Source: Actinomycetota bacterium (lineage in GTDB: Bacteria > Actinomycetota > Coriobacteriia > Anaerosomatales > Anaerosomataceae). From it: 40,425 bases of DNA. Every line of letters starts with the position of its first letter. Positions within the stretch are counted from its first letter, which is position 1. The stretch lies in the NCBI GenBank assembly GCA_004348925.1, contig RCMX01000006.1, positions 315,493 to 355,917 of the forward strand, written 5' to 3'. Under the pieces are notes generated by a model. The model made no database searches and was not told the origin of the DNA. It saw nothing but the letters and a program-made list of their open reading frames with translations. Both the position numbers and the translations under genes were made by a program. This document shows positions 2,604 through 26,891 of the stretch, piece after piece.

Positions 2604-2634
2604 TTGCCTTCTTTGTGATTAATCATATAATCAC
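2604..2634 (+). promoter_or_regulatory. Promoter with overlapping palindrome upstream of the Fic gene
   Basis: A consensus -10 TATAAT at 2626-2631 lies 16 bp downstream of TTGCCT (2604-2609). The -10 is embedded in an inverted repeat at 2615-2634 with perfect GTGATTA/TAATCAC arms. A repressor bound there would block the promoter, so autoregulation or control by a cognate antitoxin is plausible. Confidence 0.6.
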
Positions 2635-2671
2635 GTTAGTGTTTCGCGCTTCAATCAGAAAGGCTGTCACC

Positions 2672-3859
2672 GTGTACCGTTACGAGACTACAGAGATCGT
2701 CGCCACAGGCGTCCGACGGATCGAAGAGCTCCGCGCCCGCCTGGATGCGCAGGGGCCGCTCCCCCGGATCTGGCTCGGCCGGACTCGGCGCGACCTTGAG
2801 GCCGAAGCCGTAGCCGCCTCCACGATCATGGAGGGTGTGGCGGTCACCGTCGACGAGGCCCGCAGGATCCTGGCAGGCGACCGGCCCACCGGCATCTCGG
2901 CCGAAGACATCGGTCTGGTGGACGGCTACCGGAATGCGATGCGCTTCGTGCTCGCTCGCGCCGACGCGGATGCGTTCCAGTGGCAGAGCGAGCTTGTGCT
3001 GTCGCTGCACCACCTCGTGCTCGGCGGTTCGTATGCCAAGGGCGCGGGCCGGTTCAGGGAGACCCAGAACTGGCTCACGAACAGGGCGAGTGGCGCACAG
3101 GTCTACCTGCCCCCTCCCGCCGATGAAGTGCCGTCGCTCGTGGACGGCCTCATGGCGTGGCTCCAAAGAACGGATGAATCCGGGCCGGTGGCGTCGGCGC
3201 TCGCGCACGTGTCGGTGGCGGGCATCCACCCGTTTACGGATGGCAACGGCCGTACGGCGCGTATCGTCGCGTCGCTTGCGATGTATCGCGCCGGGTTCCG
3301 GCTGCCGCAGTTCACCAGCCTCGAGGAGTGGTGGGGACGTCACCTCGAGGACTACTGCTCCGCGTTCGACTGTCTCGGAACGGAGTGGGCACCTGATTCG
3401 GACGTCACCCCGTTCCTCGAGGCCCACGTACAGGCGCAGGTCGCCCAGGTGGAGGCTCTCTCGCTGCGCAACACCACCGAACGCGCTCTGTGGACGGTGC
3501 TGCAGGACGCGGCCGTGAGCGACATGGGCCTGAACGAACGCGCCACGCATGCGCTCTACGACGCCTTCTTCGCGCGCGAGGTCACCAACCGCTACTACCG
3601 TGGCATGGCGGACGTTTCCGAGGTGACCGCCTCACACGATCTGGGCAAACTCGTTGCCTCAGGCGCCCTCCAGGCCAGAGGGGCCGGAAGAAGCGCGCAC
3701 TACGTAGCTGCGCCAGCGCTCTACGAGCTTGTGGTACAGCACGCCGAACTCGATCCGCGATGGCTCGGCACGCCGGGGGACAACGTCGCCCAGCGGGACG
3801 CTGTTCTCATGGGGCTTGCGAATCGCCTGCATGCGGCCGGCGCCGCATCGGTGGTCTGA
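2672..3859 (+). CDS. Fic-domain protein, probable AMP-transferase with built-in inhibitory motif
   Basis: Fic enzymes usually transfer AMP from ATP to a hydroxyl side chain of a target protein. The full active-site motif HPFTDGNGRTAR is at residues 186-197 (catalytic His186), within a protein of 395 residues. Near the N-terminus STIMEG (residues 50-55) matches the (S/T)xxxE(G/N) inhibitory motif of class II Fic proteins, which keeps activity low until relieved. The C-terminal third looks like a winged-helix region. I chose GTG 2672 because AGAAAGG lies 8 bases upstream and the -10 box overlaps the earlier possible start at 2615. Targets are unknown; a regulatory or toxin-like role is possible. 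Confidence 0.88.
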   Translation: MYRYETTEIVATGVRRIEELRARLDAQGPLPRIWLGRTRRDLEAEAVAASTIMEGVAVTVDEARRILAGDRPTGISAEDIGLVDGYRNAMRFVLARADADAFQWQSELVLSLHHLVLGGSYAKGAGRFRETQNWLTNRASGAQVYLPPPADEVPSLVDGLMAWLQRTDESGPVASALAHVSVAGIHPFTDGNGRTARIVASLAMYRAGFRLPQFTSLEEWWGRHLEDYCSAFDCLGTEWAPDSDVTPFLEAHVQAQVAQVEALSLRNTTERALWTVLQDAAVSDMGLNERATHALYDAFFAREVTNRYYRGMADVSEVTASHDLGKLVASGALQARGAGRSAHYVAAPALYELVVQHAELDPRWLGTPGDNVAQRDAVLMGLANRLHAAGAASVV

Positions 3860-8342: not shown

Positions 8343-8873
8343 GTGTCGGGCGGGCAGGTGGACTCGCTGATCGCAGTGCCCGCATTCGTGCTCGACTTCC
8401 TGTGCATCCACCCGTTCTCCGACGGCAACGGGCGGATGTCGCGCATCCTGAACCTCATGCTCCTGTACCAGGCCGGCGATGATGTCGGCCGTTACATCAG
8501 CCTCGAGAAGGTCATCGAGGACTCGAAGGCGACGTACTACGAGGCACCCGAAGCCTCGTCGGGCGGAGGGCACGAGGACCGACACGATCTCGTTCCCTGG
8601 CTTCAGTACTCGCACGGCGTTCTCATCGCAGCGTACGTTGAGTTCGAGCAGCGAGTCGGGCAGATGGGGACAGGGCGCGGGGCGAAGCGCGACATGGTGA
8701 TCGACTGCATCCGGCACATCCCGGCGACCTTCCGGTATGCCGACGTCGAGCGAGCCTGTCCGGGGGTGAGCCGTCCCATGATCGTTCGCGTGCTCGGCGA
8801 GCTTCGAGACAAGGGTGAGATCAGGTGCACGAAGGGCGGGCGCGACGCGACGTGGGAGCGAACGACTCAGTGA
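8343..8873 (+). pseudogene. Truncated Fic-domain gene
   Basis: The frame holds the Fic active-site motif HPFSDGNGRMSR only about 23 residues from its first possible start, then 140 residues including a winged-helix-like tail. The helices that normally precede the motif are missing. The frame is open only from 8313, after a TGA, with no ATG and no ribosome-binding site. It is not a copy of the intact Fic gene at 2672. It looks like the 3' remnant of a gene cut when cassette material was joined. Confidence 0.7.
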
Positions 8874-8935: not shown

Positions 8936-9083
8936 CAACAGGGAGTGCTGCTGGGCCGCATGAAGGCGCCGACACCGCCTCTGAGCAGCACCTTTGCCGC
9001 GCGCCCGCTCTCAGCCCGAAGACATCTGTAGCCCGATCTCACACTCGAAATCGGGCTACTCAGGCCTTTGACCTGCGGTCTTA
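8936..9083 (+). repeat. Cassette terminal block, copy 2
   Basis: The block at the right end of E1 runs from CAACAGGG to the att core. The hairpin at 9030-9057 keeps its outer stem but has changed bases near the loop (CCCGATCTC against GAAATCGGG). Confidence 0.8.
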
Positions 9084-9109
9084 TGGTGCCCCCAAGGGAA
9101 TTCGAATCC
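9084..9109 (+). other. att core 2: 26-bp copy of the tRNA-Glu 3' end
   Basis: Identical over 26 bases to the tRNA-Glu 3' end at 26816-26841. The next bases, TGATTGTGCTT, match copy 3 and differ from copies 1 and 4 (CGATAGTGCTT), hinting at two cassette lineages. Confidence 0.88.
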
Positions 9110-9120
9110 TGATTGTGCTT

Positions 9121-9204
9121 GTGACTATTGGGACCTATTGGGACTCGTTGGTACAGCGGAGCTGCGGCGAGTCCCAATAGGTACCAACGAGTACCAACAG
9201 TCAC
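9121..9204. repeat. 84-bp phased inverted repeat, copy 2
   Basis: Same length and distance (11 bp) from the core as the other copies. It is the most divergent copy, with changes in the left arm and centre, yet the TTGG and CCAA steps keep their 10-bp phasing. Confidence 0.82.
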
Positions 9205-9251
9205 CATGTATTTGGGCGACAAATCGGGCAGCGAGTTGTCCGCCGCTAGCC

Positions 9252-10673
9252 CTACGTGAGGAGCCGCGCACGACGAAGTAGGCTCGCATCTTCCAGTACT
9301 TCACACGAGGGCCCGTCCGCAATCACTCGGCCGTCGGCCAGCACTACGCAACGATTGGAGAGCCGGGCGGCGAAACGCACATCATGTGTGACGAGCAATA
9401 CGCCAGCGCCATCATCAAGTCGTCGCTCAACCGCAGACACGACGGTCTCTGCAGCATCGGCGTCGAGTGCCTTTGTGGGTTCATCGAGCACGATGAGACG
9501 GGGCTCCGCCACAAGAACCGAGGCGAACGCCACCAACTGTCGCTCAGAGGCAGTGATTTCGTGGGGGTTCTCCTTCGCCAACCTGTCGATGGCTAGCTCC
9601 ACCATGACCGCATGCGCCCGCTCAACGGCTGCGTCCCGAGCGATTCCTCGAGCGATGAGACTCCACGCGACCTCGATCTCCACCAGTCTGTTGAACACTT
9701 GATCGTCGGGATTCTGAAAGAGAAGTCCTACATCGCGCGCCAAGTCCCAGATCTCACAGTCACTCGCATCCTTGTCGAGCACCCACACGTCACCCGAATC
9801 AGGTCGGAGCAGGCCGATGGTGTGCTTCATGATCGTCGTCTTGCCGGCGCCGTTCGGGCCGAGAAGGGCGACCGACTCCCCTTCACGCACGCTGAGATCG
9901 ACGTCCTCGACACCACCGCCGGAGCCATACCGGTGGGTGAGATTACGTATCTCCAGGAGCAGGCCCCCCAGGGGGCGGGCTGCGGGCCGACACGCGATCC
10001 TCGGCCCAGCATCATCAAGGTGGGGAACACCCGCGACAAGATGAAGCCGCTGTGCGCCCTCCGGCACGTGCTCGGCCTCGCGGGTGGCAATGAACACCGT
10101 CGTCCCAAGGGCGGCCTGCCGGCGTGCGAGTCCAAGAACCTCATCGGCCGATGCAGGATCGAGCTGTTCGAAGGGCTCGTCCAGAAGCAGCACGTCTGGA
10201 TCGACCGCGAGAGCCGCCGCAACTGCAACCTTCTGACGCTCACCACCGGAGAGCGTGTGCATCAAACGAGCCTCGAGATGCGCGATGTCGACCACTTCGA
10301 GCGCACCTCGAACTGCCGGTTCCAGTTCGTCCTCCGACACCCCGCGGTTGGCCAGCGGAAAGGCAATCTCGTCGAAGACGGTGCGAAACAGATAGACGCC
10401 CGAGTCCTGCAATACCATCGACGGAGTGGCCGCAGTCCCCGTGCCGACCCCGACGACATCCAGTCGTCCCGTCAGCTTGCCCTCGATCACCGTGGGCACA
10501 ACACCCGCAATGATCTCCAGGAGAGTACTCTTCCCCGCCGCATTCGGCCCGGTTATCCAGTTCTCGGAGCCGGGGGTGGCGACGAAGTTGATGCCTGCGA
10601 TTGCCGCAGTACGAGTACCCGCGTACGTGAAGCCGACTCCCTCGGCTGTGACGCGTGCGCCGCGGTCAGTCAT
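9252..10673 (-). CDS. ECF-type transporter ATPase, two nucleotide-binding domains in one chain
   Basis: A fused EcfA-like ATPase of 473 residues. Domain 1 has Walker A GPNAAGKST (42-50), signature LSGGERQ (141-147) and VLLLDEP, but the switch position reads IATRE, with Arg198 where His is usual. Domain 2 has GPNGAGKTT (272-280), a weak signature ITASERQ (373-379), VLDEPT and a normal THD (His430). One composite ATP site is therefore likely degenerate. ATG 10673 overlaps the stop of the EcfT gene (ATGA). Together with EcfT and the S component this makes a complete ECF uptake system. Confidence 0.9.
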   Translation of the reverse strand: MTDRGARVTAEGVGFTYAGTRTAAIAGINFVATPGSENWITGPNAAGKSTLLEIIAGVVPTVIEGKLTGRLDVVGVGTGTAATPSMVLQDSGVYLFRTVFDEIAFPLANRGVSEDELEPAVRGALEVVDIAHLEARLMHTLSGGERQKVAVAAALAVDPDVLLLDEPFEQLDPASADEVLGLARRQAALGTTVFIATREAEHVPEGAQRLHLVAGVPHLDDAGPRIACRPAARPLGGLLLEIRNLTHRYGSGGGVEDVDLSVREGESVALLGPNGAGKTTIMKHTIGLLRPDSGDVWVLDKDASDCEIWDLARDVGLLFQNPDDQVFNRLVEIEVAWSLIARGIARDAAVERAHAVMVELAIDRLAKENPHEITASERQLVAFASVLVAEPRLIVLDEPTKALDADAAETVVSAVERRLDDGAGVLLVTHDVRFAARLSNRCVVLADGRVIADGPSCEVLEDASLLRRARLLT

Positions 10674-11440
10674 CGGAGCACCAGCCGAGTCGTTGCGACA
10701 ACCACAATCCAGAGCACGCCCAGTGCATAGCACGCTACGGCTCCCGAGGTCACCTTGCGCTGTGGCTTCACCCTACGGCTGGAGCCGTACCCTCGGACAT
10801 GGAGCAGAACAGCCATGCCGTAGGCGCGCACGAGTGACTTCACGATGACGGGGATTAACACGGCGAGGTAGGCGCGCATCTTGCGCACAAGGTTCCCACC
10901 CATGGCCATCCCGCGGGCCTGCTGTGCCTGGATGGTGGTATCCATCTGCTGCTTCATCACAGGCAGCACACTGAGCGTGAGCGAGACCATGATGCCAAGA
11001 TCCTCGTTCACATCTCCGGCCCACCGTATGATCGCGAGCGGCCCCGTTGACAGCAGCAGCAGATACATGACGGAGACGAACCCGAGGAGGCGGATGACGA
11101 TAAGGAGTCCGGCGAGAAAGCCTTGGACGCCGAAGATCCACACGTGCTCGGTCGAGCTGGGATATGCCCATGAGTAGATGACCAGCAAAGAGAGCGAGAC
11201 CCAGGCAACGCCCCTCCAACTCCGCACGAGAGGTATGAGAAGCCTTGTGGCGGTTGCCGCCACAAGGAGCACGAGCAGCTGAGCTCCGAGACCCGGAATC
11301 GTCGGTGTCAGTGCCACAGCGAGAATCCCACAGGCGGCGAGGAACATCCGCGGGCCGACGGGGACGACCCGTAGCCCTATCGGATGCGGAAGGGCCCCCG
11401 GCTCGAACGCCGGGAGCCCTCCTGTCACATTAGCGGACAC
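10670..11440 (-). CDS. ECF transporter transmembrane coupling protein (EcfT)
   Basis: This 256-residue membrane protein is mostly hydrophobic in its first two thirds, then has the cytoplasmic stretch with QARGMAMGG and a further helix, matching EcfT coupling helices that carry Ala-Arg-Gly signatures (QQARG). EcfT links the ATPase to the substrate-binding S component. It lies between the two in one leftward operon, with a four-base overlap to the ATPase. GTG 11440 is the start with the longest fit but has only a weak ribosome-binding site; a later start near 11347 is possible. Confidence 0.85.
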   Translation of the reverse strand: MSANVTGGLPAFEPGALPHPIGLRVVPVGPRMFLAACGILAVALTPTIPGLGAQLLVLLVAATATRLLIPLVRSWRGVAWVSLSLLVIYSWAYPSSTEHVWIFGVQGFLAGLLIVIRLLGFVSVMYLLLLSTGPLAIIRWAGDVNEDLGIMVSLTLSVLPVMKQQMDTTIQAQQARGMAMGGNLVRKMRAYLAVLIPVIVKSLVRAYGMAVLLHVRGYGSSRRVKPQRKVTSGAVACYALGVLWIVVVATTRLVLR

Positions 11441-11464
11441 GAGCTTCTAAACGCATGTCGAGAG

Positions 11465-12025
11465 CTACGCTTCTTCCGGGCCCGCGGCGAAGCCCTTCAG
11501 CGTTTTCGGAAGCGCCATGATCACAAACATCACCACGAAGACCGAGAGCAGCTTATCGACCAGGTTCGAACCGATCCTGGGTATGAACGCGGCCGTGAAC
11601 ACGTCGGCACCGGCCTTCATGAGTCCGCCGACGAAGATGTCGAGCCCGCCGCCGGTGAGCCCACCGTATACATACGTCGCAATTGTGGTACCGATGATCG
11701 GCGCCACGACAGAGACGATGAGACCTGCGATGAGCACGACAAGCCACTTCTGGAACCCGAACTTGACGGAGATGAAGCCTACGATGAGGCCAACGGCGAT
11801 GTTGACGATTGCGAACCACATATCCATCGGGTTCTGGAGAGCCATGATGATGTTCGTCAGACCCCCCGTAAGCGCTCCCCACCATGGGCCGAGTATCGCC
11901 GCGGAGAGAATCGTACCGATCGTATCGAGGAATACGGGCAACTTGAGCGAGCTGGCAAGCAGCCCACCAATCACGTTGATCCCGATTCCCACCGGTACGA
12001 ACACGAGTGCGATGCGCTTGTTCAA
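11465..12025 (-). CDS. ECF transporter substrate-binding S component, CD3073-like
   Basis: This 186-residue protein has about six membrane helices. Its start (MNKRIALVFVPVGIGINVIG) and LDTIGTILSAAILGPWWGALTG resemble, from memory, the Clostridioides CD3073 family of S components. The S component sets substrate specificity. The start is TTG 12025 with AGGAGG 7 bases upstream. It leads the operon S-T-A and faces a divergent TudS-like gene, as CD3073 sits beside CD3072, so the substrate may be a sulfur-containing small molecule. The exact substrate is unknown. Confidence 0.8.
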   Translation of the reverse strand: MNKRIALVFVPVGIGINVIGGLLASSLKLPVFLDTIGTILSAAILGPWWGALTGGLTNIIMALQNPMDMWFAIVNIAVGLIVGFISVKFGFQKWLVVLIAGLIVSVVAPIIGTTIATYVYGGLTGGGLDIFVGGLMKAGADVFTAAFIPRIGSNLVDKLLSVFVVMFVIMALPKTLKGFAAGPEEA

Positions 12026-12172
12026 TGCAGGCCTCCTTCTTCACCAGATGCCGGTCGGTCGACATGCATGACCGTGCGCTCAAGGTATCATCCTGCTTGA
12101 TGGTTGTCATCAGGAATGTCAATCTGAATCGTCAAGTGGAATCCTTTCGGTAGCCACGAGGAGATGATCGAG

Positions 12173-12754
12173 ATGACCACAGAAGATGCGGGCCGAAACC
12201 CGGTGGATTCCAGGAGTCGCAGAATCGTCTTCGTGTGCCACTGCCTGCTGAACGCGAACTCGAAGGTAGAAGGTCTCGCCCAGTACGCGGGAGTGCACCC
12301 GTTGATCACGCAGCTGGCCGCCCTCGGCATCGGGATTATTCAGATGCCCTGTGCTGAGATGGGATCATGCGGCATGAGTAGGTGGGGTCAGACTCGAGAG
12401 CAGTACGAGAATGTCGCATTCCGCGGGCTATGTGCCCGGCTCTCCGATGAGACCCTCGCACAGGTTCATGAGTATCGGCGCTGCGGGTACGAGATCCTTG
12501 GTGTCGTGGGGGTCGACGGGAGCCCGACCTGTGGCGTGGCAAATTCGGCTTCGGGCCACTGGGGCGGTGAATACGCGCCTGCGGAATGGGCGGAGGTCGT
12601 GTCCAGTGTTGAATCCGCGCCGCTGCCTGGAGTGCATATCGAGGCTCTCTTTGAGCGACTTGAGCCTCTCGGCATACGCTTCTTCGCGATTGACGAGAGC
12701 GTCGAGGGCCATCACGTCGACGAGGTGATCCGGGGGCTCACGGCGACGGAGTAG
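12173..12754 (+). CDS. TudS-related putative desulfidase (CD3072-like)
   Basis: The 193-residue protein carries conserved cysteine motifs: VCHCLLNANSKVEG near the start, MPCAEMGSCGM in the middle and DGSPTCGV further on. This is the pattern of DUF523/TudS-like proteins, where thiouracil desulfidase uses an iron-sulfur cluster to remove sulfur from thiolated compounds. I start at ATG 12173, 9 bases after GAGGAG; ATG 12164 would sit directly against that site. It is divergent from the ECF operon. Import of a thio-compound followed by desulfuration is the natural joint model. Confidence 0.8.
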   Translation: MTTEDAGRNPVDSRSRRIVFVCHCLLNANSKVEGLAQYAGVHPLITQLAALGIGIIQMPCAEMGSCGMSRWGQTREQYENVAFRGLCARLSDETLAQVHEYRRCGYEILGVVGVDGSPTCGVANSASGHWGGEYAPAEWAEVVSSVESAPLPGVHIEALFERLEPLGIRFFAIDESVEGHHVDEVIRGLTATE

Positions 12755-12763
12755 CTGCACAAC

Positions 12764-12807: not shown

Positions 12808-12956
12808 CAAAAGGGACTGCTATTTGGCCGCATGAGGGCATCTACACCCCCTCTGAGCTGCGCCTTTACCCCGCGCCCGCTCTCAGCCCAAAGACATTTG
12901 TAGCCCGATTTCACGCTCGAAATCGGGCCACTCAGGCACTCTGACCTGCGGTCTTA
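12808..12956 (+). repeat. Cassette terminal block, copy 3
   Basis: 149 bp similar to copy 1, including the extended CAACTCAG flank. The hairpin at 12902-12929 keeps CCCGATTTC/GAAATCGGG. Confidence 0.8.
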
Positions 12957-12982
12957 TGGTGCCCCCAAGGGAATTCGAATCC
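12957..12982 (+). other. att core 3: 26-bp copy of the tRNA-Glu 3' end
   Basis: Identical over 26 bases to 26816-26841. Flanking bases match copy 2. Confidence 0.88.
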
Positions 12983-12993
12983 TGATTGTGCTT

Positions 12994-13077
12994 GTGACTA
13001 TTGGGACTACTTGGGACTCGTTGGTACTCAAGAGCTGCGGTGAGTCCCAATAGGTACCAACGAGTACCAACAGTCAC
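12994..13077. repeat. 84-bp phased inverted repeat, copy 3
   Basis: Almost identical to copy 4. About 28 of 37 arm positions are complementary and the three-by-three TTGG/CCAA pattern is intact. Confidence 0.85.
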
Positions 13078-13095
13078 CATGTATTTGGGCGACAA

Positions 13096-13442
13096 GCTAA
13101 CCCACAATTCGGGAGCTTGAGCCCTTGTCGAACGCGGCGCGTTTCACTACCTACTTTGGCCTTCGACGTTCGCCCACACAACGCTCAGATCTGTGAGTTC
13201 AAGCGCCAAGCGATGCTTCAAAATGTGACTTCTGTCAGGGACTTCAGCCGGACACGGTTGAGGGCCTTGCCGCGTTCTCTAGGGAGCGCCAGCTACCCGA
13301 CCGGCCGAGCACTTCTTCGAGCGAACGGCCCGAGTGGGGCAAGGGAAACATCAGCCATTGAGCATCGTGGCACGACCTGTGCTTCCAATCCTGATGAAAT
13401 GGGTAAGAATTAGAAGCACCGATTGAATCGAGGAAGGAATAC
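13096..13442. other. Gene-free stretch at the left end of E3
   Basis: About 350 bp between the palindrome and the first E3 gene. I see no coding frame with a ribosome-binding site and family-like sequence. It presumably holds the promoter of the small secreted protein gene, but no clear -35/-10 pair stands out. Confidence 0.4.
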
Positions 13443-22455: not shown

Positions 22456-22612
22456 GACGGGGAGTATAGCAGCAGGTATGCCACTGGACGATTACCTGTA
22501 GCGGCAATCAGACTCTTGCATTTCGAAGATCGCAATCCACATGCCCGCAGCCGTGGGCGTCCGTCCCCTGGGATACCATGGGGCCTCAGGGCTCTCGACG
22601 AAGGAGGGGCAC

Positions 22613-23437
22613 GTGCACGGAGCGTCACAGAAGTACGACGATCTTCGCCGCCGTCTCGAGAATCTCGGGAGCGTACTGGTCGCTTACTCGGGGGGCGTGG
22701 ATTCGACGTTCCTTGCATTTGCGGCTCATGCTTGCCTCGGCGAACGTACTTTGGCCGTATTGGGGGTGTCGGCGACAGTCCCGACGAGCGAGCTGGAAGA
22801 CGCCCGCGCGACGGCTGAGGTCTTGGGGCTGCGTCTACATGAGGTAGCCACCCATGAACTCGCCGACCCTCGCTTCCAAGCCAACCCACACGACCGCTGC
22901 TATTACTGCAAGAGTGAGTTGTTCAGCGTGCTGGGTGAGACCGCTTCAGCGTACGGAATGGAGTGGATCGCGGACGGCACCAACGCCGATGATCTCAATG
23001 ATCACCGCCCGGGCAGGAGAGCCGCAGCGGCCTACGGCGTGCTGAGCCCACTACTCGATAGCGGACTCGGCAAAGAGGAGATCCGCCTGCTCTCTAGGGA
23101 CCTGGGGCTTCCGACGTGGGACAAGCCGGCCATGGCATGCCTCTCCAGCCGCATTCCATACGGTTCACAGATCACTCCGCTGATGCTGGAGCGAGTGGCT
23201 TCCGCCGAGGCCGCGTGCCGCAGACTTGGCCTCAGACAGGTGCGCGTTCGTGCACACGGAGAAGTGGCGCGGGTGGAGGTAGATTCCTCGGAAATGGAGC
23301 AAGCATTCGCGCTGCGCAGGGAGTTGGCCCGTGGCGTTAAGGCCGCGGGCTTCCTGTTTGTCGCCCAAGACCTCGAGGGATATCGCAGCGGTTCTTTCGA
23401 CCTCGCACGCACTGGGTCTTCGTCGCAGGACCAGTGA
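22613..23437 (+). CDS. larE: LarE-type ATP-dependent sulfur transferase
   Basis: LarE proteins activate a carboxyl group with ATP and insert sulfur when building the nickel-pincer cofactor. The 274-residue protein has the PP-loop SGGVDST (26-32), CYYCK (Cys96, Cys99) and KPAMACLSSRIPYG with Cys176, the number I recall for the sacrificial cysteine of Lactiplantibacillus LarE. GTG 22613 follows AAGGAGG and gives the family's normal length; ATG 22541 would add 24 residues without a binding site. No larA, larB or larC is present in the cassette, so its partner genes must lie elsewhere or it has another sulfur-transfer role. Confidence 0.88.
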   Translation: MHGASQKYDDLRRRLENLGSVLVAYSGGVDSTFLAFAAHACLGERTLAVLGVSATVPTSELEDARATAEVLGLRLHEVATHELADPRFQANPHDRCYYCKSELFSVLGETASAYGMEWIADGTNADDLNDHRPGRRAAAAYGVLSPLLDSGLGKEEIRLLSRDLGLPTWDKPAMACLSSRIPYGSQITPLMLERVASAEAACRRLGLRQVRVRAHGEVARVEVDSSEMEQAFALRRELARGVKAAGFLFVAQDLEGYRSGSFDLARTGSSSQDQ

Positions 23438-26075: not shown

Positions 26076-26522
26076 TCATGCCAGGGCGGAATCCTCGTCC
26101 AACATCTGAGCGAGTTGCTCGGCGACATCCCCGGTGAACCGGATGCATTGCTCCATGTGCTCAGGTGACCCGAACTCAAACTGCCTGATCAGCGACCGAC
26201 AGCACGTGCTCCCCTTGTCGGCCAGGAACCAGTCATGGAGCTCCTTCGCCTTCTCGAGGACCAGTGGAGCCTCGTCGCCCGGGTTCGCTCGGCCATACAC
26301 CCAGCCGAGTACCATGACACCTCCGGATAGTGCGCCGCATGTACAACCCCCCGAGCCGATCCCACCCATGCCGACAGGAAAGCCAGACGACAGTCTCACC
26401 GCGTCGGTGGACATTGGCGACCCCATGGCCTCGTTGAATGCGTAGACGATCGCCTCGGAGCACAGGAACTGGCCACTCCTGTAGAGGTGCTCTGCTTGCT
26501 CCCTTACTGCTCGCGCGTCCAT
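26076..26522 (-). CDS. C_GCAxxG_C_C family redox protein
   Basis: A 148-residue protein with the family cysteine pattern: FLCSEAIV, GGCTCGALSGGVMVLG (the C-GCAxxG-like core), CCRSL and EQCI. These anaerobe-typical proteins are thought to bind a metal or iron-sulfur centre, but their reaction is poorly known. TTGGAGG precedes ATG 26522. It is convergent with the ArsR gene, 31 bases away, and lies next to the cassette end. A link to metal stress is suggested only by position. Confidence 0.85.
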   Translation of the reverse strand: MDARAVREQAEHLYRSGQFLCSEAIVYAFNEAMGSPMSTDAVRLSSGFPVGMGGIGSGGCTCGALSGGVMVLGWVYGRANPGDEAPLVLEKAKELHDWFLADKGSTCCRSLIRQFEFGSPEHMEQCIRFTGDVAEQLAQMLDEDSALA

Positions 26523-26815: not shown

Positions 26816-26891
26816 TGGTGCCCCCAAGGGAATTCGAATCCCTGTTGCCGCCTTGAAAGGGCGGAGTCCTTGGCCGCTAGACGATGGGGGC
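26816..26891 (-). tRNA. tRNA-Glu (UUC), integration target
   Basis: A 76-base cloverleaf on the minus strand: acceptor GCCCCCA pairs with TGGGGGC, anticodon loop CTTTCAA has TTC at 26855-26857, the T loop includes TTCGAAT, discriminator A, and CCA is encoded. Its 3' 26 bases are the sequence repeated at four other junctions. The gene is intact, so integration has preserved tRNA function. Confidence 0.97.

What the first reader, a model, noticed from the sequence alone, without database searches (positions are those of the whole stretch)
9252..12754. A mobile cassette dedicated to uptake and desulfuration of an unknown thio-compound
E2 contains only a complete ECF transporter (S, T and fused A components) and a divergent TudS-like protein with three Cys motifs. 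The same neighbours are known to me as the CD3072/CD3073 pair of clostridia. A self-contained import-plus-desulfidase module travelling as one cassette suggests scavenging of thiolated nucleobases or another sulfur-bearing nutrient.
Basis: partly seen in the sequence, partly recalled or inferred. Interest (0 to 1): 0.55.

Follow-up and report, generated by a model that had tools for sequence, protein, structure and literature searches.

The report
Mobile cassette for possible selenium scavenging
A small mobile gene cassette encodes a vitamin-type importer plus an iron-sulfur enzyme that probably strips sulfur or selenium off the imported compound, and its relatives occur almost only in selenium-using bacteria, so it may be a dedicated selenium-uptake system of a kind not yet identified.

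Summary
Window 9252-12754 encodes a complete ECF importer (double ATPase, T, S) and a divergently read TudS-like protein. S and TudS-like proteins pass NCBI's cut-offs for the CD3073/CD3072 families. The cassette lies between tRNA-Glu 3'-end repeats in an array of seven such units. In another genus one 3.6-kb stretch matches it at 88% with sharp ends.

The "thio-compound" reading is only partly supported; I found a strong link to selenium. Of 343 Clostridia genomes, 12 of 12 with CD3073 have selD, against 66 of 331 others. In Bacilli it is 5 of 6 against 114 of 392. Of 50 carrier genomes given, 48 have selD. A sister S family shows no such bias. The pair adjoins selenium genes in enterococci and a selenium-associated LysR regulator in some clostridia.

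Best reading: the importer takes up a small selenium compound and the TudS-like enzyme frees selenide for SelD. Substrate and chemistry are inferred. Against: three selD-less carriers, no selenium genes at 14 freshly sampled loci, no substrate data. Reviews call a specific selenium importer unidentified.

The parts
9252..10673 (-). Fused double ATPase of the ECF module (two ABC domains; the open frame runs to 10733, likely start 10673)
   Evidence: in L027 the same gene starts 4 bp inside the T gene
10670..11440 (-). ECF T component (CbiQ family)
   Evidence: Pfam CbiQ 53.1 bits, cut-off 25
11465..12025 (-). ECF S (substrate-binding) component, CD3073 family
   Evidence: NF045596 198.8 bits, cut-off 180; model pLDDT 92.1, matches ThiT and FolT (Z 15.0 and 14.9)
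12026..12163 (.). Divergent intergenic region between the S and TudS-like genes; no Rfam match
12164..12754 (+). TudS-like protein, CD3072 family, predicted [4Fe-4S] desulfidase or deselenidase (C27, C63, C123, E65, S120)
   Evidence: NF045597 142.3 bits, cut-off 130; model pLDDT 91.6; TudS 6z92 Z 11.7
8991..9229 (.). Left flanking repeat with tRNA-Glu 3'-end core at 9084-9109
12864..13102 (.). Right flanking repeat with tRNA-Glu 3'-end core at 12957-12982
9161..12757 (.). Unit shared with another genus as one 3599-base match, 87.9% identical, flanks unrelated
   Evidence: L027
26816..26891 (-). Intact tRNA-Glu (ttc) at the head of the cassette array

Best explanation
The cassette is a selenium-acquisition module. 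The CD3073 S protein, driven by its own T and fused ATPases, imports a small organic selenium compound. By fold and chemistry this is most likely a heterocyclic selone such as a selenated nucleobase, or a selenoneine-like ring. The CD3072 enzyme binds the Se (or S) of the C=Se group to the free iron of a [4Fe-4S] cluster held by C27, C63 and C123. With E65 and S120 assisting water attack, as proposed for TudS, it hydrolyses the bond and releases selenide (or sulfide). SelD then turns selenide into selenophosphate for selenocysteine or other selenium uses. Shown here: gene content, family membership, fold, conserved active site, tight pairing, and association with selD and selenium genes. Inferred: that the cargo holds selenium, its identity, the reaction on selenium, and delivery to SelD.
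For: selD (TIGR00476) is in 12 of 12 CD3073 genomes among 343 Clostridia, against 66 of 331 others (Fisher 1e-8). In 398 Bacilli it is in 5 of 6 against 114 of 392 (p 0.010). Of 50 genomes given, out of the 78 non-duplicate loci, 48 have it, including Bacillota, Fusobacteriota, Actinomycetota, Spirochaetota, Synergistota and Desulfobacterota. In Listeria, CD3072 is in 2 of 25 genomes, both among the 4 with selD. The sister S family is neutral: 14 of 43 genomes with selD, background 30% (p 0.73). Neighbourhood: E. gilvus has yedF-DUF3343-selB-aminotransferase-selA-CD3072-CD3073. 9 of 78 loci hold selD/selA/selB/yedF/DUF3343/selC. A selenium-associated LysR regulator passes its cut-off at five loci, bringing the total to 13 of 78 with a sixth by my own profile. 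None appears at 22 sister-S loci. The host has selD, selA and selB, and its selD has an in-frame TGA. TudS fold and catalytic positions.
Against: Three carriers lack selD: Paenibacillus radicis, G728 and a Synergistaceae MAG. None of the 14 freshly sampled CD3073 loci has a selenium gene within about 8 kb, and 13 of 78 against 0 of 22 is only p 0.066. Genomes are related, so Fisher values overstate independence. In the host's own genus 3 of the 4 genomes without the cassette also carry selD over cut-off. Six S genes stand without a TudS-like gene in the stretch held. TudS itself is known to act on thio-uracil compounds, not selenium. No selenium gene lies in the cassette. Sister S genes sit by nucleoside hydrolases, which says nothing of selenium.
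Confidence: 0.52

Rival explanations
1. Thio-nucleobase scavenging. The importer takes up thiouracil, a thiouridine base or a thiopurine, and the enzyme removes sulfur to give uracil or a purine.
For: [quoted passage not shown] The fold and active site match. Sister S genes adjoin nucleoside hydrolases in 4 of the 6 annotated sister contexts fetched, as does a distant TudS-like gene.
Against: It gives no reason for the link to selD, the selenium operons or the selenium LysR regulator. No nucleoside hydrolase was seen in the window cassette.
Confidence: 0.2
2. Shared lifestyle. Amino-acid-fermenting anaerobes tend to have selD and also tend to have this system, which imports some other scarce nutrient unrelated to selenium.
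For: Many carriers are Tissierellales, Peptostreptococcales and the like. Three carriers lack selD. Most loci have no selenium gene nearby.
Against: Carriers also include Listeria, Vagococcus, Facklamia, Loigolactobacillus, Propioniciclava and enterococci, all selD-positive. The sister S family in the same Bacilli sample is neutral. Direct adjacency to selenium genes occurs in several lineages.
Confidence: 0.18
3. Turnover of tRNA selenium or sulfur. The enzyme recycles 2-selenouridine or 2-thiouridine bases, and the importer takes up those bases from outside.
For: TudS acts on the matching thio bases, and RudS, a TudS fusion, acts on 4-thiouridine in tRNA (PMC11417400, abstract start in the search listing).
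Against: The carriers seen in selenium operons sit with Sec genes (selA, selB, selC).
Confidence: 0.1

Closest known systems
CD3073 family putative ECF transporter S component (NCBIfam NF045596) with CD3072 family TudS-related putative desulfidase (NF045597)
   Same: Both window proteins pass the curated cut-offs; adjacency of the two as in other members
   Different: No substrate is stated in the names; here the pair is tied to selenium use. In the window the pair has its own T and fused ATPases and lies in a tRNA-Glu cassette
TudS thiouracil / 4-thio-UMP desulfidase (PDB 6z92, 6z96; PMC10611767)
   Same: Fold (Z 11.7, rmsd 3.3 over 145 residues); C10/C43/C104, E45, S101 match C27/C63/C123, E65, S120 by spacing
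   Different: About 20% identity, no Pfam hit, no sequence-profile match to solved TudS at E 10, S103 position is S, T or N, extra Cys90 in 68 of 79, paired with an importer
FolT / ThiT / RibU S components of ECF vitamin transporters
   Same: Fold (Z 15.0 to 14.5); FolT weak sequence match E 2e-4
   Different: Different family; TIGR04518 FolT family 19.3 bits against 60
YedE/FdhT and SelF (DedA) of Campylobacter jejuni, proposed selenium transporters (PMC11237541, passages)
   Same: Proposed route of selenium into a selenium-using cell
   Different: Not ECF transporters; tested there with selenite and selenate; no desulfidase-like partner is described in the passages seen

Membership tests
NF045596 ECF_S_CD3073 | Score above the curated cut-off of 180 bits | tested here: met
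   198.8 bits
NF045596 ECF_S_CD3073 | Groups with the family rather than sister S families | tested here: met
   Clade of 94 CD3073 sequences plus L164, support 0.985; all other sister sequences lie outside
NF045597 TudS_rel_CD3072 | Score above the curated cut-off of 130 bits | tested here: met
   142.3 bits
TudS / DUF523 | Pfam DUF523 match | tested here: not met
   No Pfam family at E up to 0.1
TudS / DUF523 | TudS fold | tested here: met
   TudS entries are the top matches, Foldseek E 2e-4, Z 11.7; next entry Z 7.1
TudS / DUF523 | Three cluster cysteines, catalytic Glu and first Ser | tested here: met
   C27, C63, C123, E65 and S120 kept in 78-79 of 79, same spacing as C43xE45 and S101xS103C104
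TudS / DUF523 | [4Fe-4S] cluster and desulfidase activity | not testable with these tools
   Needs purified protein
ECF importer with its own module | S, T and two ATPase domains encoded together | tested here: met
Selenium-utilisation gene | Found mainly in genomes with selD | tested here: met
   65 of 68 distinct carrier genomes tested, summing and 63/64; background 23-30% in the two class samples
Selenium-utilisation gene | Next to known selenium genes | tested here: inconclusive
   13 of 78 loci, 0 of 14 freshly sampled loci, 0 of 22 sister loci
Selenium-utilisation gene | Selenium-dependent expression, uptake or growth | not testable with these tools
   No data found in the searches
tRNA-integrated mobile element | Direct repeats of a tRNA 3' end at both sides | tested here: met
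tRNA-integrated mobile element | Own integrase | tested here: not met
   No integrase domain in the array genes scanned; some short frames were not scanned

The most novel reading that the evidence does not exclude
CD3073/CD3072 is a dedicated, high-affinity organoselenium importer coupled to a deselenidase. It would be the first ECF transporter for selenium and the first iron-sulfur enzyme that hands selenide from a selenated ring to SelD. In the window it travels as a plug-in cassette for selenium-using hosts.
Probability: 0.45. Interest if true: 0.85.

Novelty: new variant of a known kind. Interest (0 to 1): 0.66.

Why it matters
[quoted passage not shown] A named pair of families without assigned substrate, present in many anaerobes, would become a concrete and testable candidate. 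It would also show that TudS-type clusters work on selenium, and that ECF vitamin transporters cover a trace element in organic form.

Tried and rejected
Riboswitch in the divergent intergenic region: no Rfam match at the gathering score other than the two tRNAs. Viral contigs: no relative of the S protein. Phage records: only weak S relatives, in four records. Solved structures by sequence: no TudS match for the TudS-like profile at E up to 10, so the relation rests on fold and motif spacing. Literature on CD3072/CD3073 by locus name, family name or accession: nothing relevant; TudS with selenium, and energy-coupling factor with selenium: nothing relevant seen in the listings. Haft and Gwadz 2023 is not held, and Haft and Tolstoy 2025 did not appear, so I cannot exclude that they mention this pair. 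An integrase in the array: none found. The control hits of NF045597 in Methanocaldococcus jannaschii and Methanosarcina acetivorans are not used, since the output does not say which of the two passes the cut-off.

Rows dropped before counts: L049 and L052 as duplicates of G014 and G048. G580 (L164) was first counted as sister S and later seen to be a broken CD3073 copy with a TudS-like neighbour; moving it gives 6 of 7 against 113 of 391, p 0.003, and sister 13 of 42. L124 is among the 50 but its S falls with the sisters in the tree. L112, L121 and L123 are sister-like and were not among the 50.
Full report
OBSERVATION. The window (40,425 bases, G+C 64%) lies in a 2.25-Mb genome (G000:C1:315493-355917). 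At 9252-12754 it encodes, on the minus strand, S (11465-12025), T (10670-11440) and a fused double ATPase (9252 to about 10673), and on the plus strand a 196-residue TudS-like protein (12164-12754). S scores 198.8 bits for ECF_S_CD3073 (cut-off 180) and the TudS-like protein 142.3 for TudS_rel_CD3072 (cut-off 130).

CASSETTE. Repeats of about 240 bases flank the unit (8991-9229 and 12864-13102) and hold the last 26 bases of the tRNA-Glu at 26816-26891. Eight such ends, including the intact tRNA, lie over 38 kb of G000:C1, with spacings of 6842, 3406, 3473, 6671, 3873, 6746 and 7113. Neighbouring units carry metal ATPases, cation efflux, cupredoxins, Fic and AbiEi-type genes; no integrase was seen. 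The S family is absent from 4 of 4 other genomes of the genus and present in 4 of 61 genomes, host included. In G016 (same family, other genus) one 3599-base match at 87.9% covers exactly 9161-12757, ending 3 bases past the TudS-like stop, with unrelated flanks. The cassette is therefore a discrete travelling unit, though how it moves is unknown.

PAIRING. A scan of GTDB contigs with an S alignment gave 110 relatives, 80 kept. Of 78 after removing two duplicates, 67 have a TudS-like gene in the stretch. Of the 11 without, two are cut by contig ends, three are sister-family S genes and six have S alone. All 14 freshly sampled carrier loci have it. Where both are present, 77 of 78 pairs lie within 300 bp and 71 of 78 on one strand. 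In a tree, 94 of 95 sequences labelled CD3073, plus the broken copy L164, form one clade (0.985). The other 25 sister S sequences lie outside it, and the remaining one labelled CD3073, L124, falls among them.

FOLD AND SITE. The TudS-like model (pLDDT 91.6) matches TudS best: Foldseek E 2e-4, Z 11.7, rmsd 3.3 over 145 residues, 20% identity. The next entry is the double-cubane protein 7yyl at Z 7.1. Pfam and a sequence profile against solved chains find nothing. TudS uses Cys10, Cys43, Cys104, Glu45, Ser101 and Ser103 (PMC10611767, passages). The spacing C43-x-E45 and S101-x-S103-C104 is repeated as C63-x-E65 and S120-P-T122-C123, with C27 as the first cysteine. In 79 relatives C63, E65, S120 and C123 are invariant, C27 is kept in 78, position 122 is S, T or N, and C90 is kept in 68. 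The S model (pLDDT 92.1) matches ThiT (Z 15.0) and FolT (14.9, rmsd 2.5 over 147); by sequence it is nearest FolT, weakly (E 2e-4).

SELENIUM. In Enterococcus gilvus the pair follows yedF, DUF3343, selB, a class V aminotransferase and selA. That led to a test of selD. The host has selD with an in-frame TGA, selA and selB. Clostridia sample, 343 genomes: CD3073 over cut-off in 12, selD in 78, both in 12; Fisher 1e-8, or 8e-7 without three genomes already known. Bacilli sample, 398: CD3073 over cut-off in 6, selD in 119, both in 5; p 0.010, or 0.029 without the centre genome. Sister S below the cut-off, 43 genomes: selD in 14, p 0.73. Carriers from the named scan: 48 of 50. Listeria, 25 genomes: selD in 4, CD3072 in 2, both within the 4, p 0.02, and the two may be close sister species. 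Summing distinct carrier genomes over and 63/64: 65 of 68.

NEIGHBOURHOOD. Of 78 loci, 9 hold selD, selA, selB, yedF, DUF3343 or tRNA-Sec within the stretch. A LysR regulator of the selenium family passes its cut-off at L069, L080, L082, L084 and L086, and L070 joins by my own profile, giving 13 of 78, from enterococci, Orenia, Halanaerobium, Facklamia and clostridial lineages. Listeria has a weaker LysR relative (169 bits against 250). Halanaerobium also has yedF, selA, a C-GCAxxG-C-C (seleno)protein and double-cubane reductases around the pair. Against this, 0 of 14 freshly sampled carrier loci have any such gene, and the contrast with 0 of 22 sister loci is p 0.066. selD alone within the stretch at 6 of 78 compares with about 0.4 expected by random placement in a 3-Mb genome, but only three or four lineages are involved.

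EXCEPTIONS. Paenibacillus radicis (L093) and G728 lack selD yet carry both proteins over cut-off. They nest with selD-positive Bacilli. L099, a Synergistaceae MAG, nests with L105 and L109; L105 has selD, L109 was not tested. They may be losses, missing sequence, or a sign of a sulfur role.

MECHANISM AND RIVALS. TudS is proposed to remove sulfur from thio-uracils by letting the sulfur bind the cluster's free iron while water attacks the carbon. That selenium in the same position would bind and leave at least as well is inference. An importer for a selenated ring, an enzyme that frees selenide, and SelD as consumer make a pathway that explains the genome pattern. Sister S genes beside nucleoside hydrolases suggest a nucleobase-like ligand, which fits both selenium and sulfur readings. 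I put selenium at about one half, thio-nucleobases at a fifth, and lifestyle confounding at somewhat under a fifth.

KNOWN WORK. Reviews state that no specific high-affinity selenium transport system has been identified in prokaryotes (PMC9312934 and PMC13188914, passages). PMC11097638 (passages) tested five candidate loci in Methanococcus without success. SelF and FdhT/YedE are proposed in Campylobacter (PMC11237541, passages). PMC5322559 (passages) named YedE, YedF, LysR_Se and DUF3343, with no occurrence of the terms ECF or DUF523. I found no paper on this pair; two likely papers by Haft and co-workers were not readable, so priority is not certain.

Noticed in passing
G000:C1:304184-342383 (window 1-26891 and to its left): Tandem array of seven tRNA-Glu-bounded units of 3.4 to 7.1 kb, mostly metal resistance and Fic or AbiEi-type genes, with no integrase seen: a cassette array without its own recombinase.
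   Followed up: partly
window 2615-3859 and 8343-8873: A full Fic gene and a second, shorter Fic C-terminal frame at the two ends of the unit left of the finding.
   Followed up: no
window 22541-23437 and 26076-26522: LarE sulfur transferase and a C-GCAxxG-C-C (seleno)protein-family gene in the unit next to tRNA-Glu; the latter family also sits beside CD3072 in Halanaerobium (L083:9141-9605).
   Followed up: partly
L083:6687-7955, L109:3322-4929, L110:5529-6695, L111:5528-6694: Double-cubane-cluster reductases next to the CD3073/CD3072 pair in Halanaerobium, Synergistaceae and Listeria; the double-cubane protein is also the next structural match after TudS for the CD3072 model. A possible electron donor or extra reduction step.
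   Followed up: partly
L033, L037, L038, L040, L159: Sister ECF S genes (halophilic archaea, Lacticaseibacillus, Enterococcus) and a distant CD3072-like gene in Neorhizobium lie by nucleoside hydrolases, hinting at nucleoside-type cargo for the wider family.
   Followed up: partly
P0001 (window 9252-10673): The second ABC domain of the fused ATPase has ITASERQ where an LSGGQ-like signature is usual (recalled), while the first keeps LSGGE.
   Followed up: no
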